Source: Pseudomonas mohnii (lineage in GTDB: Bacteria > Pseudomonadota > Gammaproteobacteria > Pseudomonadales > Pseudomonadaceae). Taken from it: a DNA stretch of 64,000 nt. The notes under the pieces are model-generated. The model was not told the DNA's origin. It worked only from the letters and a program-made list of their open reading frames with translations, and did not search any database. Of this stretch, positions 4,703-31,128 are shown piece by piece. Each line of letters begins with the position of its first letter. Within the stretch, counting starts at the first letter, position 1. Where the stretch lies: NCBI RefSeq assembly GCF_900105115.1, contig NZ_FNRV01000001.1:2651501-2715500 (forward strand). Direction: 5' to 3'. Made by a program: the position numbers and the translations under genes.

Positions 4703-6205
4703 ATGTCCACGGCCCTTTACCGCCTCATCCTCGCCATCGCACTCTTGCTGCCAATGGCTACCTACGCCGGCGACGCCGAAGACTTCGTCGCCGCCAATCC
4801 CGTGCAGCAGGCCAAACTGCTGGAAGCCTGGGCCGCGCAGCCCGATCCGGCGCGCATCGAACTGATCAACGCCCTGCAACAAGGTGAGTTGAGCATCGAC
4901 GGCCAGCCGAAAACCCTGCGCCTGAACAACCGCCTGCGGGGTCTGATCGACACCGCGCTGGCCAGCCATCAACTGCTCGCCGCCGACGCCAAAATCCGTC
5001 TCGGTGCCGCGCAGCAATTGCAGAAAAGTGCCAAACCCGCGCAACTGAAATTCCTCGACCAGCAACTGGCTGGCGAAAAGGACGAAACCGTTCACGCCGC
5101 CCTCAGCCTGGCCCTGGCCAATCTGCAATTGGTCGACAGCGACCCGGCCGTGCGCCTCGCCGCGGTGCGACTGCTGGGCGAAACCGGCGACCCGCTGGCC
5201 CGCACCCGCCTCGAAAGTCTGCTGGAACCGGGCGTCGAAACTGATGCCGGCGTGCGCACCGCCGCCGAAACCAGCCTGGCTCAAGTCAAACGCAAACTGC
5301 TGGTCGGCGAGTTGCTCGGCCAGGCCTTCAGCGGCATGTCACTGGGCTCGATCCTGTTGTTGGCGGCGCTTGGCCTGGCGATTACCTTCGGCCTGCTCGG
5401 CGTGATCAACATGGCCCACGGCGAAATGCTGATGCTCGGCGCCTACTCGACCTACGTGGTGCAGTTGATGTTCCAGCGCTTTGCCCCGCAGGCCATCGAG
5501 TTCTATCCGCTGATCGCCTTGCCGGTGGCGTTTTTCGTCACGGCGGCCATCGGCATGGCCCTGGAACGCACGGTGATTCGTCACCTCTATGGCCGCCCGC
5601 TGGAAACCCTGCTCGCCACCTGGGGCATCAGCCTGATGCTGATTCAGCTTGTTCGATTGGTGTTCGGCGCGCAGAACGTCGAAGTGGCCAACCCGGCCTG
5701 GCTGTCGGGCGGGATTCAAGTGCTGCCCAATCTGGTGCTGCCGTACAGCCGCATCGTCATCATCGCCTTCGCGCTGTTTGTGGTGGTGCTGACCTGGCTG
5801 CTGCTGAACAAGACCCGCCTGGGCCTGAACGTGCGCGCCGTCACCCAGAACCGCAACATGGCCGCCTGCTGCGGCGTGCCCACCGGGCGCGTGGACATGC
5901 TCGCCTTTGGCCTCGGCTCGGGCATCGCCGGCCTCGGTGGCGTGGCCCTGAGCCAGATCGGCAACGTCGGCCCGGACCTGGGCCAGAGCTACATCATCGA
6001 TTCGTTCCTGGTGGTGGTGCTCGGTGGCGTCGGGCAATTGGCCGGTAGCGTGCTGGCGGCCTTCGGCCTGGGCATTGCCAACAAGATTCTCGAACCGCAA
6101 ATCGGTGCCGTGCTCGGCAAGATCCTCATCCTCGCGCTGATCATTCTGTTCATCCAGAAACGTCCGCAAGGCCTCTTCGCACTGAAAGGACGGGTGATCG
6201 ACTGA
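4703..6205 (+). CDS. urtB: Urea ABC transporter permease UrtB
   Basis: A 500-aa LivH-type permease with the long extracytoplasmic N-terminal region found in UrtB. Residues 1-24 look like a signal or membrane anchor. About residues 25-200 are soluble and alpha-helical, with HEAT-like wording (DPAVRLAAVRLLGETGD). The remainder carries eight or so membrane helices, including the LLGVINMAHGEMLMLGAYSTY signature of LIV permeases. The start at 4703 is chosen because AAGG lies 9 bp upstream and it gives a good signal sequence. Its stop overlaps the urtC start (TGATG). Confidence 0.95.
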   Translation: MSTALYRLILAIALLLPMATYAGDAEDFVAANPVQQAKLLEAWAAQPDPARIELINALQQGELSIDGQPKTLRLNNRLRGLIDTALASHQLLAADAKIRLGAAQQLQKSAKPAQLKFLDQQLAGEKDETVHAALSLALANLQLVDSDPAVRLAAVRLLGETGDPLARTRLESLLEPGVETDAGVRTAAETSLAQVKRKLLVGELLGQAFSGMSLGSILLLAALGLAITFGLLGVINMAHGEMLMLGAYSTYVVQLMFQRFAPQAIEFYPLIALPVAFFVTAAIGMALERTVIRHLYGRPLETLLATWGISLMLIQLVRLVFGAQNVEVANPAWLSGGIQVLPNLVLPYSRIVIIAFALFVVVLTWLLLNKTRLGLNVRAVTQNRNMAACCGVPTGRVDMLAFGLGSGIAGLGGVALSQIGNVGPDLGQSYIIDSFLVVVLGGVGQLAGSVLAAFGLGIANKILEPQIGAVLGKILILALIILFIQKRPQGLFALKGRVID

Positions 6206-11821: not shown

Positions 11822-13522
11822 ATGAAAATTTCCCGTCAGGCCTACGCCGACATGTTCGGCCCCACCGTCGGTGACAAGGTGCGTCTGGCCGACACCGACC
11901 TGTGGATCGAAGTGGAAAAAGACTTCACCACCTACGGCGAAGAAGTGAAATTCGGCGGCGGCAAAGTGATCCGCGATGGCCAGGGCCAGAGTCAGTTGCT
12001 CGCCGCCGACGTGGTCGACACCCTGATCACCAACGCGCTGATCATCGACCACTGGGGCATCGTCAAGGCTGACGTCGGCCTCAAGGACGGGCGCATCGCC
12101 GCGATCGGCAAGGCCGGCAACCCGGATGTCCAGCCTGATGTCACCATCGCCATTGGGGCCGGCACCGAAGTCATCGCCGGTGAAGGCATGATCCTCACCG
12201 CCGGCGGTATCGACACGCACATCCACTTCATCTGCCCGCAGCAGATCGAAGAAGCGCTGATGAGCGGCGTCACCACCATGATCGGCGGCGGTACCGGGCC
12301 GGCCACCGGCACCAATGCCACCACTTGCACCTCCGGTCCTTGGCATTTGGCCCGGATGCTTCAAGCCGCCGATGCCTTCCCGATGAACATCGGCCTGACC
12401 GGCAAAGGCAACGCCAGCCTGCCGGGGCCGTTGATCGAGCAGGTCAAGGCCGGCGCCATTGGCCTGAAGCTGCACGAGGATTGGGGCACCACGCCCGCGA
12501 GCATCGACAACTGCCTGAGCGTCGCCGACCAGTACGACGTGCAGGTAGCGATCCACACCGACACCCTCAACGAATCCGGCTTCGTCGAAACCACCCTCGC
12601 CGCCTTCAAGGGTCGCACCATCCACACCTACCACACCGAAGGCGCGGGCGGTGGTCATGCCCCGGACATCATCAAGGCCTGCGGTTTCGCCAACGTACTG
12701 CCGAGTTCCACCAACCCGACCCGGCCGTTCACCCGCAATACCATCGACGAACACCTGGACATGCTGATGGTCTGCCATCACCTGGACCCGAGCATTGCCG
12801 AAGACGTGGCCTTCGCCGAAAGCCGCATCCGCCGCGAGACGATTGCCGCCGAAGACATCCTCCACGACCTCGGCGCGTTCTCGATGATCAGCTCCGACAG
12901 CCAGGCCATGGGCCGGGTCGGCGAAGTCATCACCCGCACCTGGCAAACCGCCGACAAGATGAAAAAGCAGCGCGGCCCGCTGCCCGGCGACGGTGAAGGC
13001 AACGACAACTTCCGCGCCAAACGCTACATCGCCAAATACACCATCAACCCGGCGATCACCCACGGCATCAGCCATGAAGTGGGCTCGGTGGAAGTCGGCA
13101 AATGGGCCGACCTGGTGCTCTGGCGCCCGGCGTTCTTCGGGGTCAAACCGACGCTGATCCTCAAGGGTGGCGCCATCGCCGCCAGCCTGATGGGCGACGC
13201 CAACGCTTCGATTCCGACGCCGCAACCGGTGCACTACCGCCCGATGTTCGCAAGCTTTGGCGGCTCGCTGCATGCCACCAGCATGACCTTCATCAGCCAG
13301 GCCGCACAGGAGGCCGGCCTGCCCGAAGCCTTGGGCCTGAAGAAGAAAATCGCCGTGGTCAAAGGCTGTCGCCAGGTGCAGAAAACCGACCTGATCCACA
13401 ACGACTACCTGCCGAACATCGACGTCGACCCGCAGACCTATCAGGTCAAGGCCGACGGCGTGTTGTTGTGGTGTGAGCCGGCGGATGTCTTGCCGATGGC
13501 GCAGCGGTATTTCCTGTTCTGA
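11822..13522 (+). CDS. ureC: Urease alpha (catalytic) subunit
   Basis: A 566-aa metallo-amidohydrolase carrying the dinuclear nickel centre. Active-site residues are intact: His133 and His135 (DTHIH), carbamylated Lys216 (GLKLHED), His245 (VAIHTD), His271 (HTEGAGGGH), Asp359 (SSDSQ), and the mobile flap with Cys318-His319 (VCHH). Numbering is one below that of Klebsiella urease. It should be functional once UreD, UreE, UreF and UreG load nickel; the last three are encoded about 25 kb downstream. A strong terminator follows. Confidence 0.98.
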
Positions 13523-14308: not shown

Positions 14309-17300
14309 TTATTGACCAGGCTCAAGCTCAAGGCGCGGTAACCGGGCTCGTTCGATCGCTTGTTGAGTGATCGATTTCAGCGTCTGCCGGATCTGCCGGT
14401 CGATGTCGGTCAACGCCTTGATGTAGTCCTCATCACTCATGACCTGCCCCTCGCTGAAGGCGTTTTCGTCGCGGTTCAACTCGCGACAGAGCGCCTTGAT
14501 CTCCGCCTCAAAAGCCACCTTCGCCGTCGGTTCCACGGCCTCGGAGCGACGCAGCAACGCATCTTGCAACTCCGTGGTCGCGTCGATCTGTCGCTTCAAA
14601 CTGTCCAGTTCTTTCGCGCTGGAAGACTCCAGCCAGGTGTTCCACAAGGGCTGTTCAAGGATTCGATCCGTGAGCAAGTCGCCTTCCTCCAGCGCCACGA
14701 TTCGCCGGAACGCCGCCTCGATCATTTCCTTGCTGACCCCGGCAATCTTGCGGAACTGCATGCCCCGGGCCTGCCACGGCAAATCAAGGCGCTGCGCCAG
14801 GTCAGTCATGTAAGCCAGGTGCACTTCCACTTCATCGATGGTCCCGGTGACATTGCCCTGCCCGTCGAGTCGCCGAAACCGCTCCCCCGCCGCCAACCGT
14901 GCCGCCACCCGTTGGCGGGCAATGGCGCCGAGTTCATCGAGCCGCGACTTGCCCTGGGCCAGCTCCAGCAACCGAGTTTCGATCAGGTCCGCGCTGCCCA
15001 GGGCATAGGCCTCGTGAATCAGCACCTGCAGGCCCATGGCGTTGAACAGTTGCGTGCCGCCATCCACGCACTCGGTGGGCGTGGCGGCCTCGTTGAACAA
15101 CTTGACCCGCAGTTCACTGTCCTTGGCCATGGCCTCGAGCATGCGCCAGACCTTGGCGGTCAGGTCTGTCTTGTAGGCGCCGCCCGCCGTGAAGTCGGCC
15201 GATTGAGTGAGCTTGCGGATTTCATTGAAGAATGGCACCGAGTCGAACTCATCCTCGACCTCGTTCCAGATTTCCTGTTTTTCCTGCCATTGCCGCTCGG
15301 TCATGCCCATCCACCAGTCAGAGCTGTCCAGCGTGCCGCGCGGTGGGTACGGTCGCTCCGGGTCCATGCCCACCGATTCAATGTAGGACTTGAGGGTGTC
15401 GAGGTTATCCGGCGAAATCCAGCGGGGTTCACGGCTGATCAAGGTGCGCGCCAGCAGTTCGGCGCGAAACGAACCCGGTGCGACCTCCGGGATCCGGGTG
15501 ATCGGGTTGTGTCGCAGATCGAGGTAAATACTGCGCGGCCGCGACTGGGAAAACAGTCCGACGGGCCAGCTGTCCAGGCCCGTTTCGTTGAGCAAAATGA
15601 CCTGCAATTGCGGCATGCGGCTGATGTTCGGCGCGAGCTTCAACGGGTTGCCCCGCAAGCCCAGCGACCGCAATTGAACCAGCTTTTTCAGGCGATCCAC
15701 CGCCAACGCGTCCAGTTCGATACGATTTTCATTGAAGGAAAGGTCCGTGAGATGACTCATCTCGTTGATCACCTCTGGAACGGCGGTCAGCAGGTTGTCC
15801 TGCAGGTTGAGATAACGCACCCGGCGAAACGAGCTGAGAAACCCCAGGTGCTCGTTGCGCAACTCGCCGCTGCGCACGCTCAGGCTGGTGACGTGATCGA
15901 AGTTGGCATCCAGTTTCGGCAGCGTCTCAAGCAGCCGACGGATCAGAGGAAAATCGTCGAGCTGCAGCCATTGCGGGTGCGCCGCACCTGCCACTTGCAC
16001 ACCCTCGGGCCCGCTGCGCTGCCAGCATTGCCGGATCGCCTTGTAGAAGCGCTCCCGGGCGCGCAATTCAGCAATCCCTGACGGCGTGAAACGGAAGGAC
16101 GCCGTCGGTGAAGTCATCCAGTTTTGCATCGTCCGGTTCAATTGATCGAACTCGGCCTCCAGCGCGGTCAGCCTTTCATGGGCCGATCCACCGTTCTGAG
16201 CGAACTCGGTCAACAGCGTTTCAACCTCTTGCGCAGTGAAACCCGGATACAGCGAACGAGCCCGGCGCCGCAATCCCATGCCGCGCGGGACCTGTGCATA
16301 ACCTGGCATGCCGCCGCGCAAGCGCATGACGCTCGGGTCGTAGGACGGCTTGAGAACCGGGTTGTCCCGCAGGACCGGTTCGAACACGGATCGATCCAGC
16401 GGCCGTGCCTTTATCGCTTGCTCAAGTCCCGCTGCATCATGGATTTCATAACCCAGGGCTACGCGCTGTTGGTCGGGCAATGCGTGCAGCACTGCAGCAT
16501 AAAGCGTGTCCGCGCCGTGCAGATGTTGATCGAGCGCATCCCGCGCTTCATATCGGCCATCCTCGCCCAGAATCAGCACCTTGCGGATCGGCGCGTCCTC
16601 CGGGCCAAGACTGTCGCGCAACGTGCCCGAAAATGAATATTCACGAATCTCCAGACGCAGGTCCGCAGGCCAGCCAGGCAGGGCTGCCAGGGAGTGCAGC
16701 TGCAGTCGCTCGGTGTCGGTGTTGTGCAATTCGCCGAGGTACAGGCCCTCATACGCTCGCGCCACCCTGAGCTGGTGCGCCGCTTCCCGGGCCTGTTGCG
16801 AAAGCCTCAAGGGCACGCGTTTTTTCTCGGCCAGATGCTGCAGGTCCGAAGGGTCTGCGTGATCCAGAAGCGCTTGCGCCACGCTGGTCGAGAGCGAGGA
16901 CTCGTCGCCCTTGAGCAAATTCAATCGGGCATCGTCCGTACCCTCCCGGCGCTCGTACAGCTTGTCGAACAAACGCCTTTTACTGCCTCGCGCCTGATCG
17001 GCCAGGCGATCGCGCAACGCCTTGACACGCGCCTTTGAATCCCCGGAAAACCACTGCCCCAGCATTTCGCGCAGGGCCTGTTCATCCAAGAACCCGACCA
17101 CACGCTCAGGCAAAGCACCGGCCAACAAATCCTGCCAGGTCATTTGCAAGGTGTTGGCCGGCAACGCGTCGGCATAGCCCTCCTTGATCGCCGCCCCCGA
17201 CAGGCCCGGCCCCTCGAACACTTCGATGGCCTTGCCCTCGGGCCAGCCTGGCAGTTCCGTCATGAAGCGCACGGCATAATCGCCCCAGTCCTGGCCGACT

Positions 17301-19558
17301 CGATTGGCCTGAATCTGTTCCGCACAGGCCTCGGCGTCGGCGTATGCCCTGAAGCGCTTGAGGGTATCGGTCAGCAGCGCGGGCGGGGTTTCGTGTTCCA
17401 CGTGCAGCCGGCGCAATGCATCTTCGTGAACGCCACTGACGGTCAGGATCTGCTCCAGGGTTTGATCCGTGAATCCGTCCACCGAGGCGCCCAAACGCTG
17501 GAGCAATTGACGCCGATCCCATTCCAGCGGTTGATCAAGCTCCGTCTTCCACAAGCCCGCGCCGTTGTGTTCCAGCAAGGGTTGATAGGCGTCTGCACGG
17601 GTTGGGTGTTGCAGGCGATGCTGGCCCGTGTCTGGGTCCTGTTTGACTTCATAGCATTTTTCGTCGATGCGCAGCAGGTCCCGATCCTGATGCCGGTACA
17701 AGCCTTTTTCACCGACGACGCCCTCCTTGGGCACGGTGACCGATTGCTCATAGGGCGTCAGATCCGGATTCCACAACCGCTGCTTGCCCGCGACCTCCAC
17801 AGGCTTGAGCCCTTCGACGAAGGGCGAGACCTTGATCGGTGTCAGCTGGCCGCTTGGCAATGCATGACCGGCGCTCATCAGCGCCAACTGTGCAAAGTTG
17901 ATCAGCACGCCATTGAAGTAGGCAGAGGCCTCTTCCTTGTCGCCTTTGCTCCAGTCTTCGATACCTTCGGCCACCTCGGCGAGCATCTGCGCAATCATGA
18001 TGCCGAGCATCGCTTCGCCCGCACCGGGCACCAACATCGCGGCGAAATTGAACAGGTTCCAGCCGATGTCCAGGTAACTGGTCAGGCGCTTGAAGCGGGC
18101 GTTGGCGTCCTCGTCGTCGGTCGGCACCGCGATGCGTCGGGCATCGGCGATGGCCTTGTCGCGGCGCTGCACGAACAGTGTCGCCCACAGATCGCCGGTG
18201 ATCTGATTGGTAATGGGTTCCGCATCGGGATTCTCCACCGCCGTTTCGCGCCACCACGGCCCCATGTCCAGCGGCTCGCGTTGCTGCCAGGTAAACGTCT
18301 TGAGGCGCTCGTTGACCCGGTGGAAAAACAGCCCTTTGTCCTTTTGCGCCACGAACCGGCTGAAAAAGGCCTGGTACTTCGCGTCGCGCAGCTGTCCGAT
18401 CAGGGTTTTCATGAACTCGGTCAGCGACGAGTATTCCTTGAGAGGATGCTCCGGATCATCCGGAACATAGGCGATCAAGTGGCCGGACAAACGACTCTGA
18501 TGGTAGACGTCGTCCCGGCGCAGAAGCTCATCGCTGAGACCCTGGGGCCCATTGGCAAAAAACGCCTGCAGCAGTTTGAACCGCTCGTACTCTGTTCCGG
18601 GCAATACCGGGATACGCTGCGACCATTCGCTCCAGAACTTCAACCCTTCAGGGGTCAAGGCATCGATCGCCTGCTTGATCTGCGACGGATCGCTCACGGC
18701 GCTGAACAGCACGATGCCCGTCAACCGAAAGCCCATCAGCGACAATCGGTGGCACTGCAACGGCCGATCGTACAGCGTGGTATTGGCCTGGCTCTCGCGT
18801 ATTTGCCTGAGCTTGCCGTAGGCATGGTCGCTGATATCGCCCTTCAATCGCGCGACCAGTGACGCCAGCTGAAACGTGGCTTTTTCACTGGCCACGGATT
18901 CGTCCTGCAAGGCGCTCCGGGCTTCGGCTGTTGCGGGCAGCAGGACGGATGTGATGTGCCGCTGGTACTGTCCGCCAAGGTCGAGGCTGCGGCACATCGA
19001 TGCAAACCCGGACAAGGAAATCGCGGGCTCAAGCGCAGGAGCGCCACGCTCATCCTTGCGATAGATGCCGGAGTTGCTGCGCCAGGCGTCCTCGGTGGTT
19101 TCAGATTCCTCGAAATTGTGCAGCGCCGCCTCCAGCAACGTGGACTGCCGAACGCGACTGGCCCCGGTATCAATGACAAGGCCAATTTTGCTGGGCACTT
19201 CAAGTTGTACGCTGAGCCCGTCGATGCCTTTGACGTTTTTGAAATTCGATTGCATTGCCGTACGCAGCAGTGGCTCGGCGAAGGCATTGATGTCGTGCTG
19301 CAAATCGCCCAGGGTCTTGTCCAGTACGTTTTGCAGACGCCCCTGTTCTTCAATCAATTCCTTCAGGTATTGGCGGTCTGTTTCCCGTGCACTGCTATAC
19401 CACTCAGGGGGCTCTGGCCTGAGCGTTTCAAGGCTTTCCAGTCTCGACATCGAGGCCTTTTTGATCGCCTCAGGTAGTACCGCGAGTATACGACGGTAAT
19501 AAACCCCATTATTTTGCGCGGGCGTTGCCCGCACGTTGCTTCCATGCAAATCAGACAC
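14309..19558 (-). CDS. DUF6543 / LRR / NEL-type E3 ubiquitin ligase-like effector
   Basis: A 1749-aa multidomain protein. Residues 1 to about 1085 form the large 'dermonecrotic toxin' DUF6543 scaffold, including a hydrophobic stretch near 495-530 (FNFAAMLVPGAGEAMLGIM) that could insert in membranes. Residues about 1237-1360 are leucine-rich repeats (YLNLQDNLLTAVPEVI and four or five further units). The C-terminal part from about 1395 looks like the NEL ubiquitin-ligase domain of IpaH/SspH. Cys1497 lies in ECVDGG, matching the CxD catalytic motif. There is no N-terminal signal peptide. It is monocistronic with no visible immunity gene. A role as a secreted effector is inferred; the secretion route is not shown by neighbours. 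Confidence 0.85.
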   Translation of the reverse strand: MSDLHGSNVRATPAQNNGVYYRRILAVLPEAIKKASMSRLESLETLRPEPPEWYSSARETDRQYLKELIEEQGRLQNVLDKTLGDLQHDINAFAEPLLRTAMQSNFKNVKGIDGLSVQLEVPSKIGLVIDTGASRVRQSTLLEAALHNFEESETTEDAWRSNSGIYRKDERGAPALEPAISLSGFASMCRSLDLGGQYQRHITSVLLPATAEARSALQDESVASEKATFQLASLVARLKGDISDHAYGKLRQIRESQANTTLYDRPLQCHRLSLMGFRLTGIVLFSAVSDPSQIKQAIDALTPEGLKFWSEWSQRIPVLPGTEYERFKLLQAFFANGPQGLSDELLRRDDVYHQSRLSGHLIAYVPDDPEHPLKEYSSLTEFMKTLIGQLRDAKYQAFFSRFVAQKDKGLFFHRVNERLKTFTWQQREPLDMGPWWRETAVENPDAEPITNQITGDLWATLFVQRRDKAIADARRIAVPTDDEDANARFKRLTSYLDIGWNLFNFAAMLVPGAGEAMLGIMIAQMLAEVAEGIEDWSKGDKEEASAYFNGVLINFAQLALMSAGHALPSGQLTPIKVSPFVEGLKPVEVAGKQRLWNPDLTPYEQSVTVPKEGVVGEKGLYRHQDRDLLRIDEKCYEVKQDPDTGQHRLQHPTRADAYQPLLEHNGAGLWKTELDQPLEWDRRQLLQRLGASVDGFTDQTLEQILTVSGVHEDALRRLHVEHETPPALLTDTLKRFRAYADAEACAEQIQANRVGQDWGDYAVRFMTELPGWPEGKAIEVFEGPGLSGAAIKEGYADALPANTLQMTWQDLLAGALPERVVGFLDEQALREMLGQWFSGDSKARVKALRDRLADQARGSKRRLFDKLYERREGTDDARLNLLKGDESSLSTSVAQALLDHADPSDLQHLAEKKRVPLRLSQQAREAAHQLRVARAYEGLYLGELHNTDTERLQLHSLAALPGWPADLRLEIREYSFSGTLRDSLGPEDAPIRKVLILGEDGRYEARDALDQHLHGADTLYAAVLHALPDQQRVALGYEIHDAAGLEQAIKARPLDRSVFEPVLRDNPVLKPSYDPSVMRLRGGMPGYAQVPRGMGLRRRARSLYPGFTAQEVETLLTEFAQNGGSAHERLTALEAEFDQLNRTMQNWMTSPTASFRFTPSGIAELRARERFYKAIRQCWQRSGPEGVQVAGAAHPQWLQLDDFPLIRRLLETLPKLDANFDHVTSLSVRSGELRNEHLGFLSSFRRVRYLNLQDNLLTAVPEVINEMSHLTDLSFNENRIELDALAVDRLKKLVQLRSLGLRGNPLKLAPNISRMPQLQVILLNETGLDSWPVGLFSQSRPRSIYLDLRHNPITRIPEVAPGSFRAELLARTLISREPRWISPDNLDTLKSYIESVGMDPERPYPPRGTLDSSDWWMGMTERQWQEKQEIWNEVEDEFDSVPFFNEIRKLTQSADFTAGGAYKTDLTAKVWRMLEAMAKDSELRVKLFNEAATPTECVDGGTQLFNAMGLQVLIHEAYALGSADLIETRLLELAQGKSRLDELGAIARQRVAARLAAGERFRRLDGQGNVTGTIDEVEVHLAYMTDLAQRLDLPWQARGMQFRKIAGVSKEMIEAAFRRIVALEEGDLLTDRILEQPLWNTWLESSSAKELDSLKRQIDATTELQDALLRRSEAVEPTAKVAFEAEIKALCRELNRDENAFSEGQVMSDEDYIKALTDIDRQIRQTLKSITQQAIERARLPRLELEPGQ

Positions 19559-19806: not shown

Positions 19807-20934
19807 ATGCGTCTTTCCGAATTCATCGCCTTGAACGTTAATCGAATCGTCGATGAGTGGGAGCAATTCGCCAAAACCATCACCCCGGCCGCGCAATCGA
19901 TGGATAGCGTTTCGCTGCGCGACCATGCGAAGTCGATCCTGCTGGCCGCGGCCAGGGACATGACAAAGCCTCAGACCCCCAGCGAACAGGCGGCCAAAGC
20001 CCGCGGCGAAGGGCCGGAAAAAACCCCAAGCCTGGATGAGGCCGGCGCCAGTCATGGCGAATTGCGCCACAACGTGGGGTTTGATCTGGTGCAGATGACC
20101 AGCGAATTTCGCCATTTGCGCGCCACTGTGATTCGTTTGTGGGTCGACAGCCTGGACAGCCCCAACCTGGCTTACTTCCAGGACATGATTCGCTTCAATG
20201 AAGCCATCGACGAAGCCCTGGCCGAGTCCACGGCGGCCTATGCCGAACAAGTCAATCGTTCGCGGGACATCTTTCTGGCGATTCTCGGCCACGACCTGCG
20301 CGCGCCGCTGCAAGCGGTGAGCATGTCTACCGAACTGCTGATGCGCAAAACCACACTGGAGGGCGATGCCCTGGCCTGCGCGTCCCACATCCAGCGCGGG
20401 ACGCGCCATATGGCGGTGATGGTCAGCGATTTACTGGAACTGGTACGCAGCCGCCTGGGGCGGAGCCTGCCGATCGAACCGGCGCCCATGGACATGGCCG
20501 AAGCAGCACACGCGGCGATTGCCGAAGCCTGTGCGGGCAATCCGGAGTGCGATCCGACGCTGCAAGTGCTGGGCGACGCTCGTGGTAACTGGGATCCGGG
20601 GCGCATCGCCCAGATGTTGCAAAACCTGATCGGCAACGCCTTGCAGCATGGTTCGAACAAACGCGACGTAATCGTGACCCTCAAAGGCGAGCCGCTCTCC
20701 GTTCGTCTTACCGTGCACAACTACGGAATACCCATCCCCGAAGACGCCATCGCCACGATTTTCGATCCACTGGTGCGCAACGCCGGCGAAGAACTGGGCC
20801 AACCTTCAACCAGCCTGGGTTTGGGGTTGTTTATCGTCAAGGAGGTGGTGGATGCCCACAAGGGGACGATTGAGGTCAGTTCGAATGAAGAGGACGGCAC
20901 GCGGTTTACCGTGGTGCTTCCCAGAAAGGTTTGA
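19807..20934 (+). CDS. Orphan sensor histidine kinase with RsbRD-like N-terminal domain
   Basis: A 375-aa soluble kinase without membrane segments. Residues 1-150 resemble the RsbRD/RsbT-co-antagonist N-terminal helical domain (ALNVNRIVDEW, HNVGFDLVQMTSEFRHLRATVI, FNEAIDEALAES). Phospho-acceptor His162 lies in FLAILGHDLRAPLQA. The ATPase domain has the N-box (LQNLIGNALQHGS, about 271-283), a degenerate G1 (VHNYGIPIP) and G2 (LGLGLFIVKEVV). No response-regulator gene is adjacent, so the partner is unknown. The cytoplasmic N domain suggests an internal signal. Confidence 0.9.
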   Translation: MRLSEFIALNVNRIVDEWEQFAKTITPAAQSMDSVSLRDHAKSILLAAARDMTKPQTPSEQAAKARGEGPEKTPSLDEAGASHGELRHNVGFDLVQMTSEFRHLRATVIRLWVDSLDSPNLAYFQDMIRFNEAIDEALAESTAAYAEQVNRSRDIFLAILGHDLRAPLQAVSMSTELLMRKTTLEGDALACASHIQRGTRHMAVMVSDLLELVRSRLGRSLPIEPAPMDMAEAAHAAIAEACAGNPECDPTLQVLGDARGNWDPGRIAQMLQNLIGNALQHGSNKRDVIVTLKGEPLSVRLTVHNYGIPIPEDAIATIFDPLVRNAGEELGQPSTSLGLGLFIVKEVVDAHKGTIEVSSNEEDGTRFTVVLPRKV

Positions 20935-20965: not shown

Positions 20966-21013
20966 TTACTCCACCACCAACCGCCCCAACCGCTGCCGCA
21001 ACATCCGGTTCTC
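20966..21013. repeat. 48-bp direct repeat, left copy (duplicated 3' end of cbpM)
   Basis: Identical over 48 bp to 22103-22150, which encodes the last codons and stop of cbpM. The match starts exactly at the cbpM stop codon. After one substitution at 21014 a further GCCC matches, and GGCGA precedes both copies with a 1-nt indel. The two copies are in the same orientation and bracket the RHS gene, like the attL and attR of an integrated element. Confidence 0.95.
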
Positions 21014-21102
21014 TGCCCTGACTATCAGTTCTGATAGTTCCCGGTTTTTCGCCGTCCGAGTACAACTGGGCGTACGTATCCAACCTCTAAGGCAGACCTC
21101 CC

Positions 21103-22011
21103 ATGACCGGCTCGGCAAACAGTGACCAACCCTTGCGTCTGCTGCACACTCTTTTGTTGGCCACCGACAGCAAAAGCTCGGTGCTGGCCAATATCAGTGG
21201 CGGCAGAATCAATCGCATGGCGTATTCCGCCTTTGGTTTTCAATCCGCCGAACAGGAGGAGGTCCCGCGCTTGGGATTCAATGGCCAGTTTCGCGAGGCA
21301 TTGAACTGGTATTTCCTGGGCAATGGCTATCGCGTCTACAACTCGCGACTGATGCGTTTTCATAGCCCGGACAGTTGGAGTCCGTTTGGGGAGGGTGGTT
21401 TGAATGCGTATATGTATTGCGCGGGCGATCCGGTGAATTTTTCGGATCCGACGGGGCATATGGGGCTCCGGAATTTTTGGGGGTTACAGAGAGGCATTGC
21501 AAGAACATCCAGCGCCTCCAGCTTACGGCCGCTCGTCCCAACCGCTGCCGCAGCCCCAACCAACCCCACCGCATCACGGGCAGGGATGACCAATCCCGCC
21601 TTTGACAATACAGAGAACCAGCCCACCTACAAAACCTTACCGGCACTCACCAGAACGACCAATACGGTTGTAACCACTGACACAGTGGACATCGGACATG
21701 CGAATCGAATGCCTCCCCCCATTCCGCCCAAGAAGCAGACACCCCGCTTTAATGATACCGGTGGTCAGGTGGGCATCCTTAGCCCTAATCAGCGCCCAGG
21801 CCAGCCTGCCCGGTACCGGAAGATCTGGGAAAGTGAAGCCTTTCGATTTCCTCAGGCCCCTGCTCCTGAGCCAAGAAAGCTACAAAATGGCGCCACGCGT
21901 TACTACTCCGTGAGTTACGACCTTAATGGCAACCCCACACAGAGCAGCGTCGAAAAAATCTCCATGTCCGAGCTAGCAGAACGAACGAGACGCAAGGGAA
22001 GTCAACGCTGA
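21103..22011 (+). CDS. Small stand-alone RHS-core protein with variable C-terminal tail
   Basis: A 302-aa protein starting at the ATG after TAAGGCAGACCTCCC. Residues about 35-120 are the RHS-repeat-associated core: RLGFNGQFREALNWYFLGNGYRVYN, then MRFHSPDSWSPFGEGGLNAYMYCAGDPVN and SDPTGH. The upstream RHS barrel is absent. From about residue 125 the sequence is non-conserved, rich in Pro/Thr/Ala and lower in GC, with a basic tail. In full RHS proteins the region after the core is a swappable toxin tip. No immunity-like ORF follows; cbpM comes next on the other strand. It may be an orphan tip module or a relic. Toxic activity is not demonstrable here. Confidence 0.85.
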   Translation: MTGSANSDQPLRLLHTLLLATDSKSSVLANISGGRINRMAYSAFGFQSAEQEEVPRLGFNGQFREALNWYFLGNGYRVYNSRLMRFHSPDSWSPFGEGGLNAYMYCAGDPVNFSDPTGHMGLRNFWGLQRGIARTSSASSLRPLVPTAAAAPTNPTASRAGMTNPAFDNTENQPTYKTLPALTRTTNTVVTTDTVDIGHANRMPPPIPPKKQTPRFNDTGGQVGILSPNQRPGQPARYRKIWESEAFRFPQAPAPEPRKLQNGATRYYSVSYDLNGNPTQSSVEKISMSELAERTRRKGSQR

Positions 22012-22102
22012 ATGCGTTGACCATCAACAAGGGCAATCGACTGTTTGTAATCGCAAGTGAGTCGCATCCAACAGACCTTGGAACTGGCCTGTCGAGGGCG
22101 AC

Positions 22103-22150
22103 TTACTCCACCACCAACCGCCCCAACCGCTGCCGCAACATCCGGTTCTC
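22103..22150. repeat. 48-bp direct repeat, right copy (native 3' end of cbpM)
   Basis: The right-hand member of the perfect 48-bp direct repeat. It is part of the intact cbpM reading frame (complement encodes ENRMLRQRLGRLVVE and stop). Recombination between the two copies would delete 1,137 bp, including the whole RHS gene, and leave cbpM intact. Confidence 0.95.
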
Positions 22151-22408
22151 CGCCCGCAGTTGCTGCACCTCTTCGAGCAGGTTAAGCGCCAGGGCGACGC
22201 CTTCCCATTCCAGTTCCAGGTCGCGCCGCAGCTTGGCGGCGCGCTTGGCCAGGGTCAGTTCGTAATCGGTGAAGCGCCAATCCTTCGGCGTGCCCCCTTG
22301 GGGTTCGAGGATGCCGTGTTCGACGATTTCGATCACGTAGACGTCCGACAGGTCGGTCGCCTCACAGAATTCGGCCAGGTCCAGTTGAACGATCAGAGGG
22401 CTGCTCAT
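22103..22408 (-). CDS. cbpM: Chaperone modulator CbpM
   Basis: A 101-aa protein of the CbpM/MerR-like HTH family, the normal length. In E. coli it binds the J-domain of CbpA and blocks its co-chaperone activity. Visible are the DLAEFCEATDLSDVYVIEIVEHGILEP helix-turn-helix-like region and a C-terminal coiled-coil helix (EEVQQLRAENRMLRQRLGRL). It lies 23 bp downstream of cbpA in the same orientation. Its final 16 codons are duplicated upstream of the neighbouring RHS gene. Confidence 0.93.
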   Translation of the reverse strand: MSSPLIVQLDLAEFCEATDLSDVYVIEIVEHGILEPQGGTPKDWRFTDYELTLAKRAAKLRRDLELEWEGVALALNLLEEVQQLRAENRMLRQRLGRLVVE

Positions 22409-22431: not shown

Positions 22432-23376
22432 TCAGAAATTTTCTCTCGGGTCGAACGCGGCTTTTTGCGCCAGTTCCTGCCACAGGGCCTTAATGTCATC
22501 GTCCGACTTTTTCGGCATGACGGCCTTCAGTTGCACGAACAGGTAACCCCGCTCGCCCGCCTTGCTCCGCAGGCCATGGCCCTTGGCGCGCATGCGCTGG
22601 CCGTTCTGGCTGCCGGCCGGCACCTTGAGGTTGATCTTGCCGGTCAGGGTCGGCACGGCCACTTCGGTGCCCAGGGCCAGTTCCCAGGGAGCCAGTGGCA
22701 GCGTGATGATCAGGTTTTCGCCTTCGACATCGAATTTCGGGTGCGGCGCGAAACGGATGGTCAGGTACAGATCGCCATTGGCGCCGCCACCGACACCCGG
22801 CGCGCCCTGGCCCTTGAGGCGAATGCGCTCGCCGTCGGTCACGCCGGCGGGGATCTTCACGTTCAGACTTTTAGTGGTATTGCTGACGTGCTGGCCGGCG
22901 GCGTTGTACTGCGGCACCTGGAAGGTGACCTTCTTCGACTCGCTCGAAAGGGTTTCTTCCAGAAAAATCGCCAGTTCCATTTCCACGTCCTGTCCTCGAC
23001 GCCCGCTGCTGCGACGCGACTCTGCCCCGCCAAAGCCGGGGCCACGGTTACCGAAGATCGAACTGAAGAAGTCCGAAAAATCGCCAGTGTCCTGACCGCC
23101 ACCACCGAAACCGCCACGGCTTTGCCAGCCTGGCGGCCCCTGGAACGGTTGACCATGCTGGCCATAGCGGCGCAAATCGTCGTATTCGGCGCGTTTGTCG
23201 GCGCTTTTCAACGCCTCGTAGGCCTCGGAGACATCCTTGAACTTGGCCTCGGCGTCCTTTTCCTTGCTGACGTCGGGGTGGTATTTGCGCGCCAGCTTGC
23301 GATAGGCGGCCTTGATCGCCTTGTCGTCTGCGGTCGGCTCCACACCGAGAATCTTGTAATAGTCTTTGAAGTCCAT
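22432..23376 (-). CDS. cbpA: Curved-DNA-binding J-domain co-chaperone CbpA
   Basis: A 314-aa DnaJ-type protein lacking the zinc-finger domain. The J-domain (residues 1-70) has HPD at 33-35. A Gly/Phe-rich linker follows ([25 protein letters not shown]), then two DnaJ C-terminal beta domains ending in a dimerisation tail. The start at 23376 ([11 protein letters not shown]) is chosen over an in-frame ATG five codons upstream because GGTGA sits 8 bp before it. It forms an operon with cbpM, divergent from a YegD-type Hsp70; this is a local chaperone cluster. Confidence 0.94.
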
Positions 23377-23673
23377 CGTGGGAATCACCATCCGTTATCG
23401 AAATCGCGCCACCTGACACAGCATGCGCCTTATTTGCCGCACAGAGTTTGACCGATCTCAAATTTGTGACCGGGCAGCGCTTCATAAGTTTATCGGCAGC
23501 CGGCGGGGCTTCTTGCGATTGCCCTGCGGCTGTCCGGTTGATGCAGGGTAGTTTGGGGGTGATCGCGCGTCTTTCAAGCGGTTGATCGGCAGATTTAGCG
23601 GATGGTCGGCCTTCGATTCTGTGCCGCACTGACATACACTGCGCGGCCGTTTTTTAACCGGAACTTGAAAGAC

Positions 23674-26706: not shown

Positions 26707-29700
26707 TCATTGCCCCGCAGATTCGATTGCGGCCTCTTCGGCCAAAAGATCCTTGAAGGCCAGGTTATAGCCTTCCCAGGCCGAGATGCGATTTTCGATC
26801 ACTGAGACAGGCACTCGCTCGAACGACACCCCAACCTCTCCCGGCAGACTGTACTGCGTGCCCAGCGCCTTTACAGACGTGAACTGGGTGAAAGCCCCCG
26901 ACTTATACAGTTTGTTGATTTTTATCTGCCGGAAGGTGTTGCTCTGCGAAACCTCCGGCAACGCAGCCCGGCCAGCCGGCACATCGTTGATAAAGGCAAA
27001 TTCCGCGCTTGCCGGACCTGGCTCAAGGGTTTCAATGGGCGGCAGTTCGAACTGGAAACAGCCGTTGTCCGCCGTATGCGCGGCCGGGAACTCCGGCCAC
27101 GAATCGGCAACGACCAGTTGCTTGAGATTGGTCAAGTCATCGCCGATCACCACGTACTGATGATCGAATGCGGTGGCTTTGACGAGGTGGATCCGGGAGG
27201 TTCTCGGTTGGCTGGCCAACAACGCAAAGGTCACCTTGGAATTTTCCGAGCAGTTACCCCCCTTGATTTCAATGGCTTTACGCGCATGTTCGGCAATGGT
27301 CAGGCGAGCGGTGAATTGCCCTTCGTGAAGATCCAGCCCTCGCAGCCCCTTGATTTTCGCGATCGCTGAACCGCCGTTTTCCCAGATGCTCACCAACTGG
27401 TTGCCCGACAGAGGCAGCAGTTCCTTGGATCGATAGATGGCGCGCTGTGCCAGTTGCAAGTCAGCCATGACCTGGGGCGTCACTTCAGTCGGCTGGGCTG
27501 CCGTCGTGACGTCTGATATCAAATCGTTTGCATAGCTTTCCAACGGGGCCCATCGCTCGCTGGACGTCGGCATGTTGTCCCTCACGGCACGTTGCAGCGC
27601 CTGATACTCATCCAGACGCCCGGTTTGCTCGAGATTGCGCGCGAGGGCACCCAGATTGCGCTCGGATTCCGTAAGCGCCACCAAGCCATCCTCGGGGAAC
27701 AATCGCTCGATCAATGCCAGATACTGTTCGGTCGACATCAGATTCTTGAGATCAGGCAACACTTCAATACTTTGTACGGTTCTCAGATTGGCCTCGGCGC
27801 TCTCGCCGTTCGCCTTGGCAAGTCCATCCCAGAGTAAGCCCTGGCAATCGAGGTACAAGGTGTCGACCATCAGCTTGAGGCCGCGCAGGAAGTTGTATCG
27901 TTCAATCGAGGGAACGCTCGGATGGAACGCTCCGCTGACGAATTCCGGAAATTCTTTCTCGACCGTTTGCAGCTGCGCGAGTTCGCCCGCCTGCGTGGGG
28001 GCTCCGCCACGCAGACGCATGATTGTCGGATCGAATGCCGCGCTTTTCAGCTCCGGCAAATCGGAAAGTACGCTTAACAGCCTGTAGGGTTTCAGGGCAT
28101 TGTCGCGCAATGCCGCCTTCAGGACCGGGCCCTGGCCGATCTGAATCTGCAACGCATTTCGCTCGGCATCGGGTAGCGCCTGCAGGATCGAGGTAAACAA
28201 ATCAGCGCCTGAATGCAGGACGTTACCCTGCTCGTCGCACGCCTGGAAAACGCCGCTGTCGCTCACGACCAGCGTACGTCTGATCCCAGCGTCATCAGGA
28301 CCGATGCTGTCCAGTTTTTGCCCGTCGAAGCGGTAATGACGCAGCTCGATCCTGACGTCGGCATTCCAGCCAGGCAGGTTTTCCAGGGAATGCAACGCCA
28401 GGGCGTCGAAGTCCGGATTGTCGACCGACTCCAGGTAAAATCCCTCGTACGCACGGCTGATCCGCACATCCCTGAGCGCCCAACGGGCCAAGCCTTCAAG
28501 CCGCTGGGGAAGCTTGCGCAGTTTGAGCGCCTGCAGCTCATCCGGACGCGCCAGCACCACCAGCTCCTGTGCGACGATACCGGGCAATCCGGCGACCTCG
28601 TCCTGGATGAACCTCGCCTCGGCACTGACAGCGCGCTCGACACTTCGGTAACGCCTGTCGAACAACGAAGCCTTACGCTGTTCCGCCCGTTTCGCGAACT
28701 CCCCCCGCAAACGCTCGGCATTGCGCATGCGGTCACCGACCGGTGCATCGGGTTCATCACCCAGCAGTTGACGGGTCTGGGCGTCATCGAGCAACAACAG
28801 CAGGACGTCGATCAGATCCGTGTCCGCCAGTTGATCCGTCGAGAAAGACACCGGTTCTTCACCGGCCCCGATGCTGTACAACACACGGCCGTCGGCGCCC
28901 TTGAGCTCGATCGCCCTGCCGGGCCACATGCCATCCAGCAGTTGAAACTGCCAGAGCGGATCGGCCTGCAGATAATCCTGAGCGCGGGCGCTGCCAATGT
29001 TGCGGATGAAGGTGTCGATGTCCCGGTCGATCCTGAACCGGGTCACCGTATCGCTCAGCAAAGGGATTGCGCGTTCGTTATCGGCGTACATGCGTACAAG
29101 CGCGCCGATGTCCGCACGGCTGACGGTGCGGATGTCACCGAGCCTGTCCGTCAACCCCTCGACCGACGGGCCGAGTCGCTTGATCAGCGTATCGGCATCC
29201 CAGGCATGGGGTTGCTCGCCCTCGATCACAAAAGCCCCCGTACCGTTAGTCTTTGCCACCGGCTGATAGGCCTCGGGGCGGGTCGGATGCTGGACGCGGT
29301 GCTTGCCGGTGCGCGAATCGACCTTGAGTTCGAAATGGCTATCATCCAGCGGCAAAATCTGCCGGCCCTGGTGCTGATGCAGGCCATGGAGGTCAGGTTT
29401 GGAGTCCGCCGCCAGGCGCAGATTCTGTTGCTGGTAGGGCTGCAGATTTTGCCCCCATAGCCGCTGTTCACCGTTTCTCAGCGTGACGGGGCGGGACCCT
29501 TCGAGAAATGACGACAACCTGGGCTTCAGCACTTGGGTGGCGATAACCCCTCCCGCGGCAAAGGTGCCCAACTGAATCAGGTTTTCAGCGACCCCAACCA
29601 GATGCTCCGCGGCTTCCACATACTCGCCCTCGGCAAGCTCCACGACGCCCTCCACGACCCCGTCGACCAGTTGATAGACGACGTACCCCAACATGAGCTC

Positions 29701-31128
29701 GCCCAGCACCGGCACAAACGGAGTGGCGACGAACAGGGCCACTTGCAGGATGTCGCTGAGCATTTTTTCCAGGTTTTCAATCCAGGCCCAGCGCGCGGTA
29801 CTGTCCGCATCGGCGCTGGACACGGCCAGCGCGCGCCCGTCGGAAAGGATCTTGTCCACCTGCCGCTGATAGAGATAAGGCCACAGGTCGCCGTTATAAC
29901 GGTTGGCGGTGTCGCTTTCGAACGACACGGTGGTCAATCGCAAGTCAGGGCGTTCAACCCGGGTTTCGCGCCAGGCAGGCAAATTGGAGCCAGGCTGCGC
30001 ACCGTGATAGGTGACTTCCCACAATTTCGCGTTGAGCGCGGCGAAGAAATGACCCCGCTGGGCATGGTCCACGAATCGACTGAAAAACGCCTGGTAACGT
30101 CGCCGGGATGAAGGGGGCGTCTGATCATCGCTCTGCAGCTGGCGGGTCAGCTCACGCACGAAATCGACCGACGAGGAATACTCCTTCAGTGGATGCTCTG
30201 GATCGTGCGGCACATAAGCGATAACGCGGCGGACATTGGCATTGGGCGTGTCGAGATCGGCGGCGATCAGCACAATCCCGGTCAGACGGGTGTCGAGCAT
30301 GTTCAAGTGATAGAAGCGTACCGGCGAGCCATCAAACACCAGCCCCCGCTTGCCCAGGGCCAGGTTCAATACCGTCAGGTACGCCTCGGTCCCGATGTCT
30401 TTTTTCATCAATGCCAAATGAGCTGCGGCTTTCATGGCGCTCTGTTGGCTGGCGACAATACGCTTTTGCAGCAACGCCCGGGCCATGGCCTCTTCGGGCA
30501 ACAGGTAACTTTGCAGATAGGTCTGATAGCGGGCGCCGATATCCAGCGTTCGGCAAAGAGCCTTGAACTGTTGGACCGTTATACCCAACTTCTTTATTTC
30601 AAAGCGACCGACTGCGTCAGGCTTTGTGATAAATGCAGAGTCGGTGGTAAACACTTCGCCTTCGGCAAAGTTGTGCAGCGACGCATCGAGTAAAGAAACC
30701 GTTCGACTACTGACACCACCTGTAATGTTAAAGGACCAGGCCGATGTTTTGGCCGGGTAATACAAGCGCAGAAAAGTTTCACGAACATCCAGTCGCAGAC
30801 CGTACTGGTCATTGAGGGCACGGGTCAGCAGCGGCTGGGTGAAGGACACCACATCTTGCAGCTTCCCCAGCATTCGATCGACTGTATTCTGCGCCTGCCA
30901 ACTGGCCTGCATGGCACCTTTCGCGGCCAGATGTTCCAGGTAGGTTGCCGCTTTGCTCCATTCGGGAAGCACTTTGGGAGTGGTGCGCAAATCAGCGATT
31001 CGCTGCAGCGAGGCATTGGTCATCCAGTCGGGAATCGCGCTTTTTATAAAAACCGAATGAATACTTTCCTGGTGTTCAATATCGGAAGTTTCCGGAGCTC
31101 GTCCAGAACCAATTATTAAGTCATTCAC
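26707..31128 (-). CDS. DUF6543 toxin-like protein with C-terminal Cys-His-Asp domain
   Basis: A 1473-aa protein sharing the DUF6543 scaffold of the 1749-aa effector encoded upstream. Common landmarks are HPLKEYSS, YQAFFSRFV, VQHPTRPEAYQP, a hydrophobic region (ALFVATPFVPVLGELMLG) and MRLRGG at residue 1037. Beyond about residue 1045 the two differ. This one has no LRRs and ends in a domain with Cys1293 (GGNCSEN), His1323 (FDHQYVVIG) and Asp1342 (VVADSWP), in the order and context of papain-like thiol proteases, deamidases and transglutaminases such as the Pasteurella toxin C3 domain. There is no signal peptide and no obvious immunity gene. A host-directed effector role is inferred. Confidence 0.83.
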   Translation of the reverse strand: MNDLIIGSGRAPETSDIEHQESIHSVFIKSAIPDWMTNASLQRIADLRTTPKVLPEWSKAATYLEHLAAKGAMQASWQAQNTVDRMLGKLQDVVSFTQPLLTRALNDQYGLRLDVRETFLRLYYPAKTSAWSFNITGGVSSRTVSLLDASLHNFAEGEVFTTDSAFITKPDAVGRFEIKKLGITVQQFKALCRTLDIGARYQTYLQSYLLPEEAMARALLQKRIVASQQSAMKAAAHLALMKKDIGTEAYLTVLNLALGKRGLVFDGSPVRFYHLNMLDTRLTGIVLIAADLDTPNANVRRVIAYVPHDPEHPLKEYSSSVDFVRELTRQLQSDDQTPPSSRRRYQAFFSRFVDHAQRGHFFAALNAKLWEVTYHGAQPGSNLPAWRETRVERPDLRLTTVSFESDTANRYNGDLWPYLYQRQVDKILSDGRALAVSSADADSTARWAWIENLEKMLSDILQVALFVATPFVPVLGELMLGYVVYQLVDGVVEGVVELAEGEYVEAAEHLVGVAENLIQLGTFAAGGVIATQVLKPRLSSFLEGSRPVTLRNGEQRLWGQNLQPYQQQNLRLAADSKPDLHGLHQHQGRQILPLDDSHFELKVDSRTGKHRVQHPTRPEAYQPVAKTNGTGAFVIEGEQPHAWDADTLIKRLGPSVEGLTDRLGDIRTVSRADIGALVRMYADNERAIPLLSDTVTRFRIDRDIDTFIRNIGSARAQDYLQADPLWQFQLLDGMWPGRAIELKGADGRVLYSIGAGEEPVSFSTDQLADTDLIDVLLLLLDDAQTRQLLGDEPDAPVGDRMRNAERLRGEFAKRAEQRKASLFDRRYRSVERAVSAEARFIQDEVAGLPGIVAQELVVLARPDELQALKLRKLPQRLEGLARWALRDVRISRAYEGFYLESVDNPDFDALALHSLENLPGWNADVRIELRHYRFDGQKLDSIGPDDAGIRRTLVVSDSGVFQACDEQGNVLHSGADLFTSILQALPDAERNALQIQIGQGPVLKAALRDNALKPYRLLSVLSDLPELKSAAFDPTIMRLRGGAPTQAGELAQLQTVEKEFPEFVSGAFHPSVPSIERYNFLRGLKLMVDTLYLDCQGLLWDGLAKANGESAEANLRTVQSIEVLPDLKNLMSTEQYLALIERLFPEDGLVALTESERNLGALARNLEQTGRLDEYQALQRAVRDNMPTSSERWAPLESYANDLISDVTTAAQPTEVTPQVMADLQLAQRAIYRSKELLPLSGNQLVSIWENGGSAIAKIKGLRGLDLHEGQFTARLTIAEHARKAIEIKGGNCSENSKVTFALLASQPRTSRIHLVKATAFDHQYVVIGDDLTNLKQLVVADSWPEFPAAHTADNGCFQFELPPIETLEPGPASAEFAFINDVPAGRAALPEVSQSNTFRQIKINKLYKSGAFTQFTSVKALGTQYSLPGEVGVSFERVPVSVIENRISAWEGYNLAFKDLLAEEAAIESAGQ

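What the first reader, a model, noticed from the sequence alone, without database searches (positions are those of the whole stretch)
20966..22150. RHS gene cassette bracketed by 48-bp perfect direct repeats derived from the 3' end of cbpM
Bases 20966-21013 and 22103-22150 are identical and in direct orientation. The match begins exactly at the cbpM stop codon, so the right copy is the native gene end and the left copy a duplicate. Between them lies one small RHS-core gene with a lower-GC tail. Insertion at a gene's 3' end that rebuilds the end and leaves a duplicate is how tyrosine-recombinase elements integrate. No recombinase is present, so this 1,137-bp unit would be a minimal passenger moved in trans, or a remnant. 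That RHS tip modules use such a site is, to my knowledge, not described.
Basis: partly seen in the sequence, partly recalled or inferred. Interest (0 to 1): 0.82.

Follow-up and report, generated by a model that had tools for sequence, protein, structure and literature searches.

The report
RHS gene insertion scar at cbpM
A small RHS (toxin-like) gene lies between two copies of the last 53 bases of its neighbour cbpM, and related Pseudomonas genomes have the same spot empty or filled with different RHS genes, so the repeat is likely the scar of a one-sided DNA insertion made by the cell's own recombination rather than by a dedicated integrase.

Summary
In detail: window 20966-21018 and 22103-22155 match at 52 of 53 bases, the first 48 exactly. 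The right copy is the native cbpM 3' end; no further copy was found in the genome. The histidine kinase (HK)-cbpM gap is an RHS slot. Of 95 relatives' cbpM loci, 50 are empty HK-cbpM sites, 10 hold RHS, 34 show neither HK nor RHS, 1 is another duplication. A named scan adds 15 filled genomes. Three of these 25 also carry a cbpM-end copy left of RHS (one fresh, two decayed), breaking about 92-99 bp into cbpM against 53 here; in the other 22 none was detected. Gene-end duplicates flank RHS genes at other loci too, once on the opposite side. RHS cores in the slot cluster by site, and no PF00589 recombinase lies within 360 kb. I read the repeat as the scar of one-sided homologous plus illegitimate recombination, not an att site. 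Most short RHS genes start at an operator-like palindrome before a sigma70-like promoter; why breaks fall so near it is unexplained.

The parts
19807..20934 (+). histidine kinase gene (HK), left border of the slot
   Evidence: HATPase_c and HisKA; next to cbpM without RHS in 50 of 95 relatives' loci
20966..21018 (-). left copy of the cbpM 3' end (relic), 53 bp
   Evidence: 52/53 to 22103-22155; starts at the stop codon, ends 3 nt before the palindrome
21022..21037 (.). palindrome CTATCAGTTCTGATAG, operator-like left edge of the RHS unit
   Evidence: 9 sites of CTANCAGNTCTGNTAG in the genome, each before a short RHS gene; the pattern is present in 57 of 78 named RHS loci
21038..21066 (+). promoter-like -35 (21038-21043) and -10 (21061-21066), 17-nt spacer
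   Evidence: conserved columns in 71 units chosen by the palindrome and an RHS motif downstream; prediction
21103..22011 (+). short RHS gene, 302 aa; RHS-associated core about 21223-21459, variable proline-rich C-terminal tail after it
   Evidence: TIGR03696 residues 41-119; no Pfam match; alignment of 10 slot proteins
22103..22155 (-). right copy, native 3' end of cbpM
22103..22408 (-). cbpM, chaperone modulator gene, open frame intact
   Evidence: MerR_2; CbpM model below its cut-off
22432..23391 (-). cbpA (DnaJ family), right flank
   Evidence: DnaJ and DnaJ_C

Best explanation
The direct repeat is likely the scar of a one-sided insertion: DNA carrying an RHS gene joined to a cbpM gene would have recombined with the resident cbpM by homology on the right and been joined on the left by illegitimate, microhomology-type recombination inside the resident cbpM's last 53 bases. 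Shown: the repeat, the empty and filled states of the slot, cbpM-end copies in three other genomes with a different breakpoint, and clustering of RHS cores by site. Inferred: that the DNA came from another cell of the same or a very close species, that GCCC at the junction served as microhomology, and that ordinary homologous recombination through HK and cbpM later swaps whole slot alleles. The RHS gene appears to be a stand-alone C-terminal tip (core plus variable tail) with its own predicted promoter and operator, so it should be expressed wherever it lands. The left copy is probably a functionless relic that decays. While fresh, it could let RecA excise the RHS gene and restore the empty site (untested).
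For: Observation. Of 95 relatives' cbpM loci, 50 empty with HK beside cbpM, 10 with RHS, 34 with neither, one tandem duplication; 22 of 78 loci of a named scan are RHS in this slot, 15 of them new genomes. A fresh left cbpM copy in Pseudomonas sp. Irchel s3f7 (L188), 89 of 90 bases with 87 in one exact run; decayed copies in G272 and G387; 0 of 200 shuffles in each. G228 falls with G272/G387 in a 3-row clade (SH-aLRT 98) on a cbpA tree, is empty, and its HK-gap-cbpM end aligns through the relic. HK-to-palindrome distances in the named filled slots with HK range from 24 to 208 bp, one 1920. Duplicated gene ends at other RHS loci: L200 (SsuC-like gene, 155 bp, 88%, 385 bp from the palindrome), L258 (74 bp exact, end of the upstream gene plus terminator, on the right side), decayed in L048 of this genome. 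Gene-end duplicates at 4 of 70 RHS units, the window being one of the 4; 13 of 600 control brackets gave a hit, by eye 3 RHS, 8 repeat-element-like, 2 unresolved. Slot and non-slot RHS cores need 6 changes on the tree against 18 in shuffles, 0 of 500 as low. Filled/empty needs 18 changes on the cbpA tree, at least 8 forced. Precedent: passages of PMC5361080 and PMC11751169 invoke homology-facilitated illegitimate recombination for T6SS effector genes, the first also for Rhs loci.
Against: The left junction is 3 nt from the palindrome in the window and close to it in s3f7, G272 and G387; in 9 of 17 pairs of similar RHS units (not independent: several share a unit) similarity also stops right at that edge. 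Random joining does not predict this. The s3f7 and G272/G387 copies end at nearly the same cbpM position. HFIR is described as deleting recipient DNA of about the insert's size (PMC3240628, introduction passage), whereas here DNA was duplicated. Both window copies share a variant not seen in the other loci compared (best 46/48), so the donor must be very close, or the duplication arose in place. The G272/G387 relic is far more diverged than their clade is deep, so that event is not dated by the clade. In one search one of 209 shuffled pairings of left and right flanks scored 54, above the window's 51; that null mixes loci of the same slot and so is not clean. The core tree is a quick one, and its starred branches alone force only 2 slot changes.
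Confidence: 0.6

Rival explanations
1. In-place tandem duplication and loss: an RHS gene already in the slot would have been duplicated together with 53 bp of cbpM, and the upstream RHS copy later deleted, leaving its cbpM piece beside HK.
For: G351 (L107) shows a tandem duplication in this very slot with both cargo copies kept and a cbpM 3' piece between them. Both window copies share a variant not seen in the other loci compared. The sequence before each copy is similar (GGCGA / GGCGAC), which could be a deletion microhomology.
Against: It needs a second event ending at the cbpM stop codon. In the G228/G272/G387 clade the relic aligns with the native HK-gap-cbpM arrangement without need of a deletion. 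No RHS remnant lies in the 31 bp beside HK.
Confidence: 0.2
2. Site-specific integration: the RHS unit would be a minimal cassette inserted in trans by a recombinase, with the repeats as att sites or the palindrome as the recombination site.
For: Sharp left edge at the palindrome; insertion at a gene 3' end with the gene restored; direct repeats.
Against: cbpM breakpoints differ; no cbpM copy detected in 22 of 25 other filled genomes; duplicates at other loci involve other genes, a relic 385 bp from the palindrome, or the other side; nearest PF00589 match about 367 kb away (serine recombinases and transposases were not searched); palindrome positions 4 and 13 do not covary, unlike a folded site; cores mostly keep to their slot.
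Confidence: 0.12
3. Chance or assembly artefact.
For: None found.
Against: 48 exact bases, 0 of 200 shuffles; a second genome with the same arrangement; the locus lies in a 6.48-Mb contig.
Confidence: 0.01

Closest known systems
Homology-facilitated illegitimate recombination of T6SS effector and Rhs loci (Vibrio cholerae PMC5361080; Pseudomonas aeruginosa PMC11751169; passages seen)
   Same: New toxin-gene modules enter a fixed locus anchored by homology on one side; older sequence remains on the other.
   Different: Here a stand-alone short RHS gene with its own predicted promoter sits at the 3' end of a chaperone-modulator gene, and the anchor gene itself is partly duplicated.
Rhs C-terminal displacement and orphan tips (PMC2935791 and PMC3967940; search listing and start of abstract only)
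   Same: RHS core ending in DPTGH followed by a variable tail; arrays of short units occur.
   Different: Most of these units have a conserved operator-like palindrome and promoter and sit in dispersed slots; no ORF for an immunity protein fits between the window's RHS gene and cbpM.
Tyrosine-recombinase elements at gene 3' ends (recalled)
   Same: Insertion at a gene 3' end, gene end present on the right, duplicate on the left.
   Different: No PF00589 gene near, no fixed crossover point, no repeat detected in most filled sites.
Integron gene cassettes (recalled)
   Same: Single-gene units with a palindromic element.
   Different: Palindrome lies upstream, before the promoter, and its variable pair does not covary; no integron integrase model was searched beyond PF00589.

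Membership tests
HFIR product | one junction inside long homology | tested here: inconclusive
   cbpM matched full length on the right in the filled loci printed; the crossover point cannot be seen because the two window copies are too alike
HFIR product | other junction illegitimate, often with microhomology | tested here: inconclusive
   GCC(C) at both cbpM breakpoints; HK-to-palindrome distances vary; the short GC-rich match was not tested against chance
HFIR product | recipient DNA deleted at the illegitimate side | tested here: not met
   the window has a duplication instead; not assessed in the other filled slots
Tyrosine-recombinase element | integrase on the element or nearby | tested here: not met
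   13 PF00589 matches in the genome, 12 over the cut-off, nearest about 367 kb away
Tyrosine-recombinase element | constant crossover point in the target | tested here: not met
   53 bp versus about 92-99 bp into cbpM; no copy detected in 22 of 25 other filled genomes
Tyrosine-recombinase element | gene 3' end rebuilt with a duplicate left | tested here: met
Tyrosine-recombinase element | circular excised form | not testable with these tools
   needs PCR
Integron cassette | attC-like folded site at the 3' end | tested here: not met
   palindrome is 5' of the promoter; its variable pair shows T/C 20, T/A 17, G/A 14, G/C 14, A/A 5, T/T 1
RHS polymorphic toxin tip | RHS-associated core, then a variable tail | tested here: met
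   TIGR03696; alignment of 10 slot proteins
RHS polymorphic toxin tip | cognate immunity gene downstream | tested here: not met
   only 91 bp between the RHS stop and cbpM
RHS polymorphic toxin tip | toxic activity of the tail | not testable with these tools
   no Pfam match

The most novel reading that the evidence does not exclude
Short Pseudomonas RHS genes are self-contained travelling units with a defined left end at an operator palindrome, and the copied piece of the neighbouring gene serves as a portable homology arm: it lets host RecA plug the unit into any empty cbpM site and pop it out again without harming cbpM, so a toxin-like repertoire spreads and swaps with no mobility gene of its own.
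Probability: 0.2. Interest if true: 0.75.

Novelty: new variant of a known kind. Interest (0 to 1): 0.48.

Why it matters
It turns an apparent att site into a readable scar of how RHS genes enter chromosomes, and identifies a recurrent slot (25 other genomes here) where arrival, relic decay and loss can be followed. It also points to a shared promoter and operator that would let a newly arrived RHS gene be expressed at once, and makes recombinase-free excision through a 53-bp repeat directly testable.

Tried and rejected
Fixed-site integration was rejected as the lead because breakpoints vary and no repeat was detected in 22 of 25 other filled genomes. A hairpin role of the palindrome was rejected because its variable pair does not covary. 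Phage carriage: one hit to a 19-nt pattern in viral contigs, in an AT-rich 8.3-kb stretch where no RHS motif was seen on the strand searched. Plasmid carriage: 16 records, all at 60-80% identity, none covering 80% of the query; the 10 listed cover 13-14% in the RHS-core part. Donor tracing by nearest relatives of HK, cbpM halves, cbpA and yegD gave no single donor. Rfam at gathering thresholds found one RNA in the window, not in the slot; ARAGORN found no tRNA. Papers: no paper in the held library contains the 16-nt palindrome or all of cbpM, Rhs and Pseudomonas; the listed titles and abstract starts showed no description of RHS genes at gene 3' ends with such relics. This speaks for those searches only.

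Rows dropped and limits: one search found a match in 234 of 398 genomes (own included) and listed part of its matches; the 95 loci examined are 15 and 80, mostly the best matches, so they lean to close relatives. RHS was sought by tblastn at E 1e-5 with two good and two faulty helper queries, so distant RHS genes could be missed. The left-copy test looked at most 300 bp left of the palindrome (260 bp in loci without HK); the best of the non-significant loci had 11 of 200 shuffles as good (L201). One search kept 108 of 111 rows; one search's strict pattern kept 57 RHS cores, 23 of them in the slot; one search used 74 units, searches used 71, one search used 70. Those units were chosen by the palindrome pattern, so its conservation within them is by construction; the independent figures are 9 of 10 short RHS genes in this genome and 57 of 78 named RHS loci. 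Only 3 of 57 relatives, own included, hold the pattern. The named scan was chosen by RHS similarity, so its filled fraction is not a frequency.

Full report
Observation. The 48-bp direct repeat is real and exact, and extends to 53 bp with one mismatch. The right copy is the 3' end of cbpM. The left copy lies 31 bp after the stop of a histidine kinase gene (HK) and ends 3 nt before a palindrome. Between them is one RHS gene of 302 aa. The genome search found no third copy of the repeat, and 0 of 200 shuffles reached its score.

The slot. Gene order yegD-cbpA-cbpM-HK is shared by many relatives. In 95 relatives' cbpM loci, 50 have HK and cbpM back to back with 8-206 bp between, 10 have an RHS gene beside cbpM (7 with HK, 3 without), 34 show neither HK nor RHS in the stretch looked at, and one (G351) has a tandem duplication of another small gene with a cbpM piece. 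These 95 are mostly the better-matching of the 234 genomes (own included) that matched. A scan of named genomes by RHS similarity gave 78 loci, of which 22 are this slot, 7 of them genomes already counted. So 25 other genomes hold an RHS gene here. Ten aligned slot proteins share the N-terminus and the RHS core but not the tails. A full-length relative 98% identical to the window's protein exists in public sequence, without context.

Relics. Three of those 25 carry a cbpM-end copy left of the RHS gene, as the window does. Pseudomonas sp. Irchel s3f7 has 89 of 90 bases (87 in one exact run), and G272 and G387 have decayed copies; each beats all 200 shuffles. The s3f7 and G272/G387 copies end about 92-99 bp into cbpM, the window's at 53. 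In the remaining 22 filled genomes no significant cbpM copy was found within the 260-300 bp examined; where HK is present, the palindrome lies 24-208 bp from HK in the named loci, once 1920 bp. G228, which groups with G272 and G387 (SH-aLRT 98) on a cbpA tree, is empty, and its HK-gap-cbpM end aligns along the relic with small gaps. This is the expected picture if the left copy is the resident cbpM end and the intact cbpM came in, or was kept, with the RHS gene. The relic's divergence is greater than that of the clade, so that insertion is older than the clade or arrived already decayed.

Other loci. Among 70 RHS units, seven had direct repeats across the gene above the threshold: two are RHS arrays, one looks like a repeat element, and four are gene-end duplicates (window; s3f7; L200, the 3' part of an SsuC-like permease gene; L258, the end and terminator of the upstream gene, copied to the right side). 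Six hundred control brackets from the same loci gave 13 hits: three RHS, eight repeat-element-like and two unresolved coding stretches of one locus; this sorting was by eye. An earlier null that paired flanks of different units reached 54 once in 209, above the window's 51, but it mixes loci of the same slot. A decayed piece of an efflux-lipoprotein-like gene lies left of an RHS pair elsewhere in this genome, and a 22-bp piece of the SsuC-like gene end lies left of an RHS array that seems split over two contigs. The names SsuC-like, efflux-lipoprotein-like and DUF3077-like are my reading of the translations, not a family search. Copies from different genes, of different length and on either side, fit one-sided recombination better than a fixed att site.

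The palindrome. CTANCAGNTCTGNTAG occurs at 9 sites in this genome without mismatch (one site reads on both strands), each before a short RHS gene; the backward control pattern has none. Twelve RHS cores were found, ten in short frames and two in long ones; one short RHS gene and the two long ones lack the palindrome. The pattern is present in 57 of 78 named RHS loci, and four of the slot loci without it have a one-mismatch form; in the 57 relatives' genomes, own included, only 3 hold it. In 71 units chosen by the palindrome, it is followed by a -35-like TTCYCA, 17 nt, and a -10-like TAAAAY, while little beyond position -1 is conserved upstream. The two variable palindrome positions do not covary, which points to a protein-binding dyad rather than a hairpin. 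That it is an operator is inferred. In 9 of 17 pairs of similar units, several sharing a member, similarity stops at this edge. I cannot explain why breaks fall so near it, other than that everything further upstream may be dispensable.

Site fidelity and turnover. On a quick tree of 57 RHS cores the slot label needs 6 changes against about 18 when shuffled (0 of 500 as low; well-supported branches alone force 2), so RHS genes mostly stay with the cbpM slot. On the cbpA tree of 108 loci, filled versus empty needs 18 changes, at least 8 forced. Together this suggests exchange of slot alleles by recombination through the flanks, plus losses. No PF00589 match lies within 360 kb.

Mechanism. I favour one-sided insertion: homology in cbpM on the right, illegitimate joining on the left at GCC(C) in the resident cbpM. 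Homology-facilitated illegitimate recombination is proposed for T6SS effector modules and Rhs loci in Vibrio (PMC5361080, passages) and for effector swapping in P. aeruginosa (PMC11751169, passages). It is described as deleting recipient DNA (PMC3240628, passage); here a duplication was made, so a sister-chromosome or merodiploid-type variant would be needed, or an in-place tandem duplication with loss of the first RHS copy, which I keep as a rival at 0.2. All steps of the mechanism are inferred from sequence.

Novelty. The process is a variant of a known one. What is new, as far as the listings show, is the cbpM slot, its relics, and the shared operator-promoter of the short RHS genes.

Noticed in passing
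window 14309-19558 (-) and 26707-31128 (-): Two very long genes flank the slot region. The first has ToxA_N, LRR and NEL (E3 ligase) domains; the second was not searched in Pfam but its N-terminus matches many of the same stretches in relatives. In several relatives urea genes follow HK instead, so this is a second variable site.
   Followed up: partly
window 21534-21552: A 19-nt piece of the repeat (18/19) lies inside the RHS gene at the core-tail linker; shuffles expect none. The window's cbpM shares CCGCA with it where most other cbpM ends printed differ, so a short conversion tract is possible.
   Followed up: partly
L107 5550-7120 (G351): Tandem duplication of a small ORF (my reading: DUF3077-like, not searched) plus about 140 bp of the cbpM end in the same slot, with both copies kept.
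   Followed up: partly
L258 about 3710-3783 and 5055-5128: 74-bp exact direct repeat across an RHS gene: end of the upstream gene plus its terminator, copied to the right just after the RHS stop, before a pdxB-like gene (my reading).
   Followed up: partly
L200 about 3338-3492 and 5085-5239: Relic of an SsuC-like gene 3' part left of an RHS gene, 385 bp from the palindrome, with unrelated sequence between.
   Followed up: partly
L048 5868-5940 and 8949-9021 (this genome, 3.13 Mb): Decayed copy of an efflux-lipoprotein-like gene stretch left of an RHS pair; the same left flank occurs in P. moorei (L230).
   Followed up: partly
window 11969-12254 (-): 5' ureB small RNA family match, E 2e-31.
   Followed up: no
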